A stretch of 64,000 bases of DNA from a virus. A program made the translations under genes and the position numbers. A model generated the notes under the pieces. The model made no database searches. It was given only the letters and a program-made list of their open reading frames with translations, and was not told the origin of the DNA. Below, piece by piece: positions 1,613-10,594 of this stretch (the stretch's first letter is position 1; each line of letters begins with the position of its first letter). The stretch is from IMG/VR virus record IMGVR_UViG_3300032236_001727, positions 19,144 to 83,143 of that record; one strand, 5' to 3'.

Positions 1613-1687
1613 AACCTTGGTGTCAATCATAGTTTGGTACCGGGAGCGGGAATCGAACCCGCACGGCCTTTTGGGCCAAGAGATTTT

Positions 1688-2370
1688 CTTACTACTATAG
1701 TTTTCACTACCACTGAACGTGTTTGTAGTCTGGACTATACCTTCACCATACTTTCGTTTAGGTGTTCCGTGTCTAGTCTCTACACCTTCTTCATTTCTGA
1801 AGCTTGGCTCGGTATTACCATTTTAAAGGCTTCACCGAATTTACGGAATTCTACTCCTTAAATTTCTCTAAGGGCACTCAAATTTTGTTTGTTCCTACCA
1901 GCATAAGTAGTTGTTTGTGAATGGCAATTAGGGCATAAAAATCTTAAATTTTCTATTCTATGGTCCCCATTGATTCCATTTATATGATCTAGATGAAGTG
2001 AAATACTCATATTATTCCATTCATTTATACCACATATAGAACACTTATATTCAATTAAACCATTTTTAATTATTTCTTTTCTTACTGAACATCTAGAAGC
2101 ATAATCTTCTATATGTGTTATACGCTTACTAATATTTTTATTTAATCCCTTTCCTGATTGGTTGGGTTTATAACAATCATATTTTAAAGCATATTTTTTG
2201 AAAGAATTAAAATGTAAATTTAATTTAGCAGCAGCTCTAGCCATAGAAGGCTCAGTGTTGCATACTTCTATAAAGTATTCTTTACTTATGCTAGTTATTT
2301 TTTTCATATCTATCAGTTTTATGTATTTACCCATAAATATGAAAAAATTTCAAAGAACTAAAACTCTCTC
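1688..2370 (-). ncRNA. Group I self-splicing intron in tRNA-Leu(UAA)
   Basis: The 683-nt intron follows a U at the 5' splice site and ends in G. P1 is visible: exon GACUU pairs with intron GAGUU (intron nt 5-9) with the diagnostic U-G at the cleavage site and a GAGA loop. Core elements lie at the 3' side. P (1828-1842) and Q (1802-1813) form P4 through UCGGU/ACCGA. The R segment (about 1769-1786, GUAGAGACUAGAC) and the S segment (about 1728-1744, AAGGUAUAGUCC) pair GACUA/UAGUC as P7. An HNH endonuclease gene fills the region between P1 and the core. The site and core resemble the bacterial tRNA-Leu IC3 introns. Confidence 0.92.
1858..2334 (-). CDS. Intron-encoded HNH homing endonuclease
   Basis: A 158-residue protein wholly inside the group I intron. 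The N-terminal half contains a helix-turn-helix-like segment (MARAAAKLNLHFNSFKKYALKY) with an intervening basic GKGLNK stretch. The C-terminal half is an HNH nuclease: CSICG, LHLDHINGI with the catalytic His, a central NLRFLCPNCH zinc knuckle, then a basic tail. Two CxxC pairs would hold zinc. Such enzymes cut intronless alleles and drive homing of the intron. The start ATG at 2334 is 37 bases into the intron and the stop is at the edge of the catalytic core, so the gene occupies the peripheral loop. Confidence 0.9.
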   Translation of the reverse strand: MGKYIKLIDMKKITSISKEYFIEVCNTEPSMARAAAKLNLHFNSFKKYALKYDCYKPNQSGKGLNKNISKRITHIEDYASRCSVRKEIIKNGLIEYKCSICGINEWNNMSISLHLDHINGINGDHRIENLRFLCPNCHSQTTTYAGRNKQNLSALREI

Positions 2371-2406
2371 AAGTCTCTCATGTCTACCTTTTCATCACCC
2401 CGGCAT

Positions 2407-2799: not shown

Positions 2800-3411
2800 T
2801 TAATTATTTAGATGCTTATTGAAAATCTTTTTCACATCATTTATACCTAATTCAATAGATAATCGTTTATTTGGTTCTTCAAATTTTTTATCAATATCCA
2901 TTGAATCTACTATACAATAATACATTTCATTAGCATTATTTCCTAAGAAATATATTTCAGAATACTGTATGTTTTCAGATTGATATAATCGTTTTAATAA
3001 ACTATTAGGCATATCCTTTATTACTTTATATGTTTGTCCATTCTTTTGAATGTCTATAAGCATATCTACATATGGGCCATCTATTTTTATACTATTGTAT
3101 TTCTGGTATATTTCTAAATCTTCATCAATAGTAGAGGCATATAGCAGTTTTGTAAACATTTCACTACCTGGTTTGGGAATTCCTCCACCGTTTGAAGCTC
3201 TCAATATTAGCACCTTATCGGCACCCGAATCTTGTAATAGTTGTTCTATTATTCTATATATTTGAGATAAGTCTTGTAAATTGTTAGATAATTTTTCAAG
3301 ATGTTTTTTTCTTGTTTTTTCTCTAAAATGATTTATAATTTTTACAAATCCAGCTCCTCCTAAAAAATTCAATATAGCTACAATTATATTACTTACAGGG
3401 AGTATATTCAT
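2800..3411 (-). CDS. Membrane-anchored hypothetical protein
   Basis: 203 residues. An N-terminal hydrophobic segment (about residues 5-24, SNIIVAILNFLGGAGFVKII) precedes a basic, helical stretch (REKTRKKHLEKL). A soluble domain then includes LILRASNGGGIP and a C-terminal helix. The topology is one membrane anchor with the bulk on one side. It lies 14 bases downstream of the endolysin, so a spanin-like or other lysis-associated role is possible. The soluble part also loosely resembles a GAF-type sensor fold. No function is assigned. Confidence 0.55.
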   Translation of the reverse strand: MNILPVSNIIVAILNFLGGAGFVKIINHFREKTRKKHLEKLSNNLQDLSQIYRIIEQLLQDSGADKVLILRASNGGGIPKPGSEMFTKLLYASTIDEDLEIYQKYNSIKIDGPYVDMLIDIQKNGQTYKVIKDMPNSLLKRLYQSENIQYSEIYFLGNNANEMYYCIVDSMDIDKKFEEPNKRLSIELGINDVKKIFNKHLNN

Positions 3412-6479: not shown

Positions 6480-6510
6480 GTTTATTATGTTTTTTGTTAT
6501 TGGATATTAG

Positions 6511-6584
6511 GATTTAAGAAAGGATTTGAACCTTTACCTCGCGCCTTCTAGTCAGCCCTTATGCTACCGTTACACCACTTAAAT
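6511..6584 (-). tRNA. tRNA-like gene, anticodon arm abnormal
   Basis: A perfect acceptor stem (ATTTAAG with CTTAAAT), a D arm (GTGT, loop with GG, GCAT), variable region GAGGT and T arm (AAAGG, TTCAAAT, CCTTT) are all present; discriminator C, CCA not encoded. The 19 bases where a 17-base anticodon arm belongs do not form a normal stem, and no 7-base loop with U33 and a plausible anticodon can be drawn. It may be a decayed tRNA, or one altered in the anticodon loop. The isotype is left open. Confidence 0.7.
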
Positions 6585-6971: not shown

Positions 6972-7001
6972 TTTTTGTTTGTTTTTATTGTTTAATAATA
7001 G

Positions 7002-7080
7002 TTAGCATGACAGGATTTGAACCTGTGACCTCCGCCTTGTAAATGGATGGCGGCACTCTACCAGACTGAGCTACATGCTA
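7002..7080 (-). tRNA. tRNA-Val(UAC)-like with a 12-base anticodon loop
   Basis: Acceptor TAGCATG/CATGCTA, D arm GCTC...GAGT with GG in the loop, variable AGGTC and T arm ACAGG/CCTGT are all regular; discriminator A, CCA not encoded. The anticodon stem CCGCC/GGCGG is perfect. It encloses ATCCATTTACAA, a 12-base loop. Removing the first five bases leaves TTTACAA, a canonical loop with anticodon UAC (valine). The gene is therefore either a valine tRNA with a 5-base insertion or a functional variant with an expanded loop. Total length is 79 nt. Confidence 0.82.
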
Positions 7081-9898: not shown

Positions 9899-10594
9899 TT
9901 ATTTTCTTATAGAAACAATATTAAAACCATTTATTTCAGTTTCAATACTTACTGGTTTAGCAAATATGTTTAGTTCTTGTAATCTAGATAAATGATATTC
10001 GTCAAGTTCAAAATTAGCAACTTCAGATACTTTATTACTATTTTCTTTGAAATTTTCTATATGGTTTATTTCTCTATTAGTGAATACATTCCCTATAAAT
10101 AAGAAATAACAATTATAACATAAAAGTTGCATATTTCCTAGGTTATAATGCCTTTTATCATTATCTTTAAAATGTAATATTAATGGTATTTTGAAATCAA
10201 CAACACGTCTTTCACAAAAACCACATTGATTACATTTCTCCTCAAGAAATCCTTCTGTAATAAGTCTATATTTTATTTTTTCAGGATTAAAAGGTAAAGG
10301 ATCAACTCTACCTTCAATTATATCTAGTAAAGGTGTTTCTCTAGTTCCATCTCTAAGGAATTTAGGTATTCCCTTTCCACATTGATTTTTATGTTCATCA
10401 AATAATGTAGCCCCTGTTTCAGGATTAACATATAATTTAGCGTATTTTTTATAATGCTGGTAACTGCAATTTAGATAACGAGCTGCACTTTTGTTGGATT
10501 TAGTTTTAGCCATTGCAGCTATAACCATTTCTTTAGTTATGGGTTTGGGATGTCTACCTCTGTTTTCTGCAGGTTTTCTATTTAAATCATCCAT
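9899..10594 (-). CDS. HNH-like zinc protein with N-terminal HTH
   Basis: 231 residues. The N-terminal part has a helix-turn-helix-like segment (KSNKSAARYLNCSYQHYKKYAKLY), then a GKG linker, an arrangement also seen in the intron endonuclease at 1858-2334. The second half has CNQCG, a LILHFKDND strand and NMQLLCYNCYF. That is the scaffold of an HNH zinc fold, but the usual catalytic LDHINGD is replaced by LHFKDND, so nuclease activity is uncertain. Alternatives are a DNA-binding regulator or a degenerate free-standing homing endonuclease. Confidence 0.65.
   Translation of the reverse strand: MDDLNRKPAENRGRHPKPITKEMVIAAMAKTKSNKSAARYLNCSYQHYKKYAKLYVNPETGATLFDEHKNQCGKGIPKFLRDGTRETPLLDIIEGRVDPLPFNPEKIKYRLITEGFLEEKCNQCGFCERRVVDFKIPLILHFKDNDKRHYNLGNMQLLCYNCYFLFIGNVFTNREINHIENFKENSNKVSEVANFELDEYHLSRLQELNIFAKPVSIETEINGFNIVSIRK

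What the first reader, a model, noticed from the sequence alone, without database searches (positions are those of the whole stretch)
1635..2404. Phage tRNA-Leu(UAA) with a group I intron at the U34/A35 position, carrying an HNH endonuclease
The exons join into a perfect tRNA-Leu(UAA). The intron has a textbook P1, P4 and P7 core and ends in G. Its site is identical to that of the ancient cyanobacterial and plastid tRNA-Leu(UAA) introns, which usually lack a homing endonuclease. Here the HNH gene sits between P1 and the core, giving a self-splicing, mobile intron in a phage. Phage tRNA introns are rare, so this could be a route by which tRNA-Leu introns moved between lineages.
Basis: partly seen in the sequence, partly recalled or inferred. 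Interest (0 to 1): 0.88.

Follow-up and report, generated by a model that had tools for sequence, protein, structure and literature searches.

The report
Phage tRNA-leucine intron carrying homing nuclease
A virus of bacteria carries a leucine tRNA gene interrupted by an RNA that very likely cuts itself out, with a DNA-cutting gene lodged in that RNA's first loop; such introns turn out to be common in phages, and relatives show the DNA-cutting gene both beside and inside the same tRNA gene, the before and after states of a mobile intron.

Summary
Confirmed. Minus strand 2404-1635 is a tRNA-Leu(UAA) split between U34 and A35 by a 683-nt group I intron (Rfam RF00028, 50.5 bits, cut-off 50) with an intact HNH gene. 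With 24 related phage introns, 29 of 51 core pairs show compensatory changes (0 of 500 shuffles). Two corrections. (1) The HNH gene is most likely inside the P1 loop, not between P1 and the core: the guide shared by all relatives (TTTGAGTGC, 1882-1874) lies in the last HNH codons, and ORF-less relatives run GAGAGT..TTTGAGTGCCC unbroken. (2) Phage tRNA introns are not rare: a truncated viral-contig scan gave 109 distinct matching loci, nearly all split tRNA-Leu(UAA) genes, mostly ORF-less. The nuclease family is tied to this tRNA gene: 23 of 48 free-standing relatives beside a tRNA flank tRNA-Leu(UAA), against 8.4 expected. Its nearest relative (L002, 71% identical, support 100/97) is free-standing 7 bp before an intronless tRNA-Leu(UAA) and shares the leader found in the intron; others sit beside split tRNA-Leu genes, and intronic forms arose repeatedly. 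This fits the published collaborative-homing model. Splicing and cleavage are inferred. A 2014 review reported no phage tRNA introns; later subscription literature could not be searched.

The parts
2371..2404 (-). 5' exon of tRNA-Leu(UAA), 34 nt, ends ..GAGACTT (U34)
   Evidence: ARAGORN intron mode; coordinates and exon sequence
1688..2370 (-). Group I intron, 683 nt, starts GAGAGAG, ends ..GTAGTAAG
1635..1687 (-). 3' exon of tRNA-Leu(UAA), 53 nt, A35 to encoded CCA
1858..2334 (-). HNH endonuclease gene, 158 aa (second Met at 2306 aligns with the start of relative L002); in the P1 loop, its end overlaps the guide and P2
   Evidence: PF01844 E 5.7e-6, phrog_10822 E 5.9e-34
2293..2357 (-). Leader GTTCTTTGAAATTT.. 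to the first HNH codons, homologous to DNA before the free-standing HNH of L002; possible promoter (inferred)
   Evidence: pairwise alignment, homology starts at this motif; same motif in the P1-HNH intron of L331
1874..1882 (-). Internal guide TTTGAGTGC (3' strand of P1)
   Evidence: GAG invariant in 25 of 25 introns; position
1856..1873 (-). P2 hairpin CCTTAGAGAAATTTAAGG
   Evidence: all 7 pairs covary in the family; position
1808..1848 (-). P3 5' strand, P4, P5
1732..1808 (-). P6, P7, P3 3' strand, P8
   Evidence: P3, P7 and P8 covary; positions
1688..1731 (-). P9.0/P9 region and terminal G

Best explanation
This is a tRNA-Leu(UAA) gene of a tailed phage interrupted by a self-splicing group I intron of the tRNA type (IC3-like). 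The intron RNA would remove itself by the usual two transesterifications and release a tRNA that reads UUA, the phage's commonest leucine codon. An HNH homing endonuclease gene with its own leader sits in the P1 loop. The nuclease most likely cuts intronless tRNA-Leu(UAA) genes of co-infecting phages, and repair copies the intron in. The element most likely arose when a free-standing HNH gene that already lived beside tRNA-Leu(UAA) genes was captured into an ORF-less intron of that gene, as the collaborative-homing model proposes. Shown here: gene structure, intron class, covariation, family-wide link of the nuclease to tRNA-Leu, sister relation to a free-standing gene beside an intronless tRNA-Leu, scattered intronic state. 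Inferred: splicing, cleavage and its target, direction of capture.
For: Exact tRNA after removal of 683 nt; RF00028; covariation; same ribozyme at the same site in many phage contigs and in bacteria; intact HNH; HNH family next to tRNA-Leu(UAA) in 23 of 48 loci against 8.4 expected; nearest relative L002 free-standing 7 bp before an intronless tRNA-Leu(UAA) with homologous leader; free HNH beside split tRNA-Leu genes; P1-HNH introns not one clade, AU p 0.0056; cassette splits the P1 loop of ORF-less relatives; UUA is 639 of 1,236 Leu codons.
Against: No splicing or cleavage data. RF00028 score only at its cut-off. HNH families include free-standing nucleases with other targets, and only about half of the free-standing relatives that have a tRNA within 200 bp flank tRNA-Leu(UAA). 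The trees are unrooted, so escape of the HNH gene from introns is not excluded. The adjacency test does not correct for kinship of the loci, and the loci were chosen by likeness to an HNH inside tRNA-Leu. No empty allele of this phage's own locus was found.
Confidence: 0.8

Rival explanations
1. Same intron, but P1 is the proximal hairpin AGACUU|GAGA|GAGUUU, so the HNH gene lies between P1 and P2 and P1 has moved upstream in this intron.
For: The proximal pairing is longer and stronger: 7 pairs, -4.7 kcal/mol, against 4 pairs, -1.9.
Against: The distal guide is kept letter for letter and adjoins P2 as in all relatives; other P1-type HNH introns have no proximal GAG in their first 22 nt; ORF-less relatives also begin GAGAG yet use the distal guide.
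Confidence: 0.2
2. HEG turnover or escape: the ancestral intron carried the HNH gene, and free-standing copies beside tRNA-Leu derive from intronic ones or replaced them.
For: Proposed for other phage loci (PMC10448857); the trees here are unrooted.
Against: ORF-less introns dominate; HNH sits at two different places in the intron; window and L331 proteins have tails read from intron sequence that free-standing kin lack.
Confidence: 0.15
3. The intron is a splicing-dead remnant or the HNH is inactive, so the gene is a pseudogene.
For: RF00028 score just at the cut-off.
Against: Core pairs intact, exons rejoin exactly, HNH motif and cysteines intact.
Confidence: 0.05

Closest known systems
Cyanobacterial (and plastid) tRNA-Leu(UAA) group IC3 introns
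   Same: Same tRNA, same site between U34 and A35, same core; cyanobacterial copies score 126-133 bits with the phage model R1.
   Different: None of the cyanobacterial loci fetched holds this HNH family; they form their own clade.
ORF-less tRNA-Leu(UAA) introns of phages such as Agrobacterium phage Atu_ph07 and huge phage LR756501
   Same: Same ribozyme and site; LR756501 core plus 3' exon 77.5% identical to the window over 248 bases.
   Different: 205-278 nt, no HNH gene; not mentioned in the two papers.
Collaborative homing (free-standing endonuclease joined with an ORF-less intron; PMC2988022)
   Same: Free endonuclease beside the intron's target gene, beside a split gene, and inside the intron, all in one HNH family.
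   Different: Target is a tRNA gene; cleavage not shown.
T4 SegB, a free-standing homing endonuclease of a phage tRNA cluster (PMC2988022 table)
   Same: Phage nuclease gene in a tRNA cluster.
   Different: GIY-YIG family, no intron; different family from HNH.
I-PfoP3I, HNH in a group IA2 intron of a cyanophage DNA polymerase gene (PMC3428280)
   Same: HNH homing endonuclease in a phage group I intron.
   Different: Protein gene and another intron subgroup; not compared by sequence here.

Membership tests
Group I intron | Conserved core P3-P8 with P7 guanosine site | tested here: met
   RF00028 above its gathering score; P3, P4, P6, P7, P8 present and covarying
Group I intron | U.G pair at the 5' splice site and terminal G | tested here: met
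   U34 with G of the guide in 25 of 25; intron ends in G
Group I intron | Self-splicing with GTP | not testable with these tools
   needs an in vitro assay
Subgroup IC3 (tRNA type) | Short P5 without the P5abc extension | tested here: met
   P5 is a 14-nt hairpin, 1830-1817
Subgroup IC3 (tRNA type) | Homology to the tRNA introns of cyanobacteria | tested here: met
   R1 finds cyanobacterial tRNA-Leu introns at 126-133 bits
Subgroup IC3 (tRNA type) | Best score among subgroup covariance models | not tested
   subgroup models not on hand
HNH homing endonuclease | HNH motif with zinc-binding CxxC pairs | tested here: met
   PF01844; motif and cysteines intact
HNH homing endonuclease | Cuts the intronless allele near the intron site | not testable with these tools
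   only the link to tRNA-Leu(UAA) is shown
Collaborative homing pathway | Free-standing relatives beside intronless and ORF-less-intron copies of the same gene | tested here: met
Collaborative homing pathway | Direction from free-standing to intronic | tested here: inconclusive
   trees unrooted; intronic state scattered

The most novel reading that the evidence does not exclude
Phages are a main reservoir and vehicle of tRNA-Leu(UAA) group I introns: an HNH family specific for this tRNA gene moves the introns between phages and was captured repeatedly in the P1 loop, and phage-to-bacterium transfer seeded some of the bacterial tRNA-Leu introns long thought ancient and immobile.
Probability: 0.25. 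Interest if true: 0.85.

Novelty: new variant of a known kind. Interest (0 to 1): 0.62.

Why it matters
A 2014 review stated that all phage introns then known lie in protein genes despite the many phage tRNA genes (PMC3984707). Here tRNA-Leu(UAA) introns prove common in viral contigs, and a nuclease family tied to that gene gives them a plausible motor. Standard tRNA scans miss them, so phage tRNA counts are likely too low. The proposed stages of mobile-intron formation (free nuclease, nuclease beside an ORF-less intron, nuclease inside the intron) are all present at one gene, so the model can be tested directly.

Tried and rejected
Empty allele of the window's own locus through the 203-aa neighbour gene (2800-3411): no relative in viral contigs. 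PDB sequence search with the HNH: nothing; fold search of the AlphaFold model: best EcoKMcrA, E 0.02, TM 0.29, not significant. Synteny of the window with other intron loci: none beyond the intron and HNH, apart from a few distant matches of larger genes at 23-32% identity. Window intron as close kin of cyanobacterial introns: it groups with phage introns, though the alternative is not rejected. Sigma-70 promoter or terminator signals around the intron: no more than in shuffles. TAGTTCTTTGA as a promoter of this phage: not enriched in the window. The first large intron tree held wrongly cut rows (L165, L143 and others) with long branches; it was rebuilt without them. The first HNH tree lacked L002 through a wrong start; rebuilt.

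Full report
What is there. On the minus strand, 2404-1635 is a tRNA-Leu(UAA) gene: 5' exon 2404-2371, intron 2370-1688 (683 nt), 3' exon 1687-1635 with CCA encoded. Default ARAGORN and Rfam scans of the window miss it; ARAGORN in intron mode and an Rfam search of the short stretch find it (RF00028, 50.5 bits, E 1.1e-11; own genome). The window is part of an 83,143-bp IMG/VR virus record with phage-type genes: family B DNA polymerase, DnaB helicase, UvsX-like recombinase, endolysin, ribonucleotide reductase, thymidylate synthase, GroEL. The polymerase is only 26-29% identical to those of T4-like, cyanobacterial and jumbo phages. UUA is the main leucine codon, 639 of 1,236, so this tRNA is useful only if the intron is removed.

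The ribozyme. Twenty-five phage introns were aligned, the window core among them (A1). With P1 and the P7 pseudoknot written in by hand, 96.6% of cells pair, 29 of 51 pairs have compensatory changes, 246 cells are changed on both sides against 71.5 in shuffles, and no shuffle of 500 reached the observed values; sliding the partners by one base drops pairing to 34-42%. The outer pair of P7 alternates A-U and U-A without exception (20 and 5). The model R1 built from this set finds cyanobacterial tRNA-Leu introns at 126-133 bits, alphaproteobacterial and acidobacterial ones at 192-194, and introns of other tRNAs at 105-125. This is the tRNA-type, IC3-like class, at the same U34/A35 site as in cyanobacteria.

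Where the HNH gene sits. In all 25 introns an invariant GAG next to P2 pairs with the exon end. In the window it is in TTTGAGTGC at 1882-1874, inside the last codons of the HNH frame. ORF-less introns L119, L163, L174 and L198 start GAGAGTAAAATTTGAGTGCCC; the window has GAGAGAG, then the HNH cassette, then CAAAATTTGAGTGCCC. So the cassette interrupts the P1 loop. The window protein ends ..GRNKQNLSALREI while L002 ends ..GRNKK: the extra codons are intron sequence. In L009, L018, L036 and L151 the ORF's stop TGA is part of the guide itself, and L331 repeats the window's read-through into P2. A proximal GAGAGAGUUUU could pair better with the exon (-4.7 against -1.9 kcal/mol), but no other P1-type intron has a proximal GAG in its first 22 nt, so I hold it a rival, not the main reading.

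How common. The fetched loci hold 109 distinct matches of this signature. All but a few (such as L122, L134, L142, L171, L173, L193 and L197, whose sequence behind the match does not fit) show a tRNA-Leu(UAA) 3' exon behind the intron's end, most with an intron of about 180-220 nt. About 20 of the 109 carry the HNH inside the intron and about 15 carry it just outside. Among named genomes the intron is in Agrobacterium phage Atu_ph07 (490 kb), LR756501 (735 kb) and LR756511 (595 kb, with HNH); the Atu_ph07 and huge-phage papers do not mention an intron. Cultured Synechococcus myophages have intronless tRNA-Leu genes that match the exons of a split metagenomic copy at about 86-94%.

The nuclease. 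Its relatives live in phage tRNA clusters: 66 of the 80 closest lie within 500 bp of a tRNA. Among 48 non-redundant free-standing loci with a tRNA within 200 bp, 23 flank tRNA-Leu(UAA), against 8.4 expected if tRNAs of the same loci were drawn at random (none of 20,000 draws as high). This test does not correct for kinship. The nearest relative, L002, is free-standing 7 bp before an intronless tRNA-Leu(UAA) and is sister to the window HNH at 100/97. Homology of the DNA begins abruptly at GTTCTTTGAAATTT before both genes, so a cassette with its own leader probably moved. In L034 and L119 the free HNH ends just before a split tRNA-Leu; in L117, L139 and L146 it follows one. L034 and L041 have nearly identical flanks, but the whole tRNA-Leu gene differs and only L034's has the intron: gene and intron were exchanged as a unit. 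AlphaFold gives a helical N-terminal domain resembling a helix-turn-helix and an HNH part, mean pLDDT 76.

History. P1-HNH introns are not one clade (AU p 0.0056) and need at least five changes on the phage intron tree; the P1 class needs at least five changes on starred branches of the HNH tree. HNH genes also sit at a second place, near L6 (L010, L084, L096). Capture therefore happened repeatedly, or the gene was repeatedly lost. Cyanobacterial introns form one clade (100/100); the window intron lies in a phage-only clade (98/94). Phage introns as one clade are not rejected (p 0.36), nor is window plus cyanobacteria (p 0.25), so the deeper direction of transfer is open.

Against the literature. 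The collaborative-homing model proposes that a free-standing endonuclease pre-adapted to an intron's site joins an ORF-less intron (PMC2988022); an alternative by HEG turnover has been proposed (PMC10448857). A 2014 review says all phage introns known then were in protein genes despite many phage tRNA genes (PMC3984707). Ten searches of the open library found no later report of phage tRNA-Leu introns; subscription papers were not searchable. One public record (Microcoleus phage, OR578706) does annotate a 286-bp tRNA-Arg, which model R1 shows to hold such an intron. I therefore call the finding a new variant of a known kind.

Shown and not shown. Shown: gene structure, intron class, conservation, position of the ORF relative to the conserved guide, link of the nuclease to tRNA-Leu, repeated association. 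Inferred: splicing, nuclease activity and target, promoter role of the leader, direction of capture.

Noticed in passing
L323 2449-2664 (Pelagibacter phage HTVC120P) and L325 1947-2125 (marine phage KM23-C739): The same ribozyme (159 and 120 bits with R1) splits a capsid gene, so this intron lineage is in protein genes too.
   Followed up: partly
L324 1814-2099 (Microcoleus phage My-WqHQDG, OR578706): Annotated 286-bp tRNA-Arg holds a group I intron after CCTCCT (127 bits with R1), a second tRNA type split in a phage.
   Followed up: partly
L093, L095, L116, L123, L132, L182, L189, L201: Intron-bearing phage tRNAs with a UAA anticodon but a short variable arm, unlike normal tRNA-Leu.
   Followed up: no
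window 7001-7080, minus strand: tRNA-like gene whose anticodon loop seems 12 nt long (ATCCATTTACAA); ARAGORN reads it as Val(TAC) only with a 5-nt insert.
   Followed up: no
window 6510-6584, minus strand: A second odd tRNA-like gene (39.8 bits) with an irregular anticodon arm.
   Followed up: no
window 9899-10594, minus strand: A second HNH-type protein (phrog_14736, E 6.6e-7), free-standing.
   Followed up: no
L004 5610-6016 and L018 4634-5060: GOLLD RNAs (308 and 239 bits) in the same phage tRNA clusters as the HNH or the intron.
   Followed up: no
L246 (uncultured Bacilli MAG contig): tRNA-Leu(UAA) with a 687-nt intron holding this HNH family, the only one among the fetched genome-contig loci; may be a phage contig in the bin.
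   Followed up: partly
L082 2945, 5128, 5970; L036; L331; L002 648: GTTCTTTGAAA recurs before genes and tRNAs in several of these phages; maybe a shared promoter element.
   Followed up: partly
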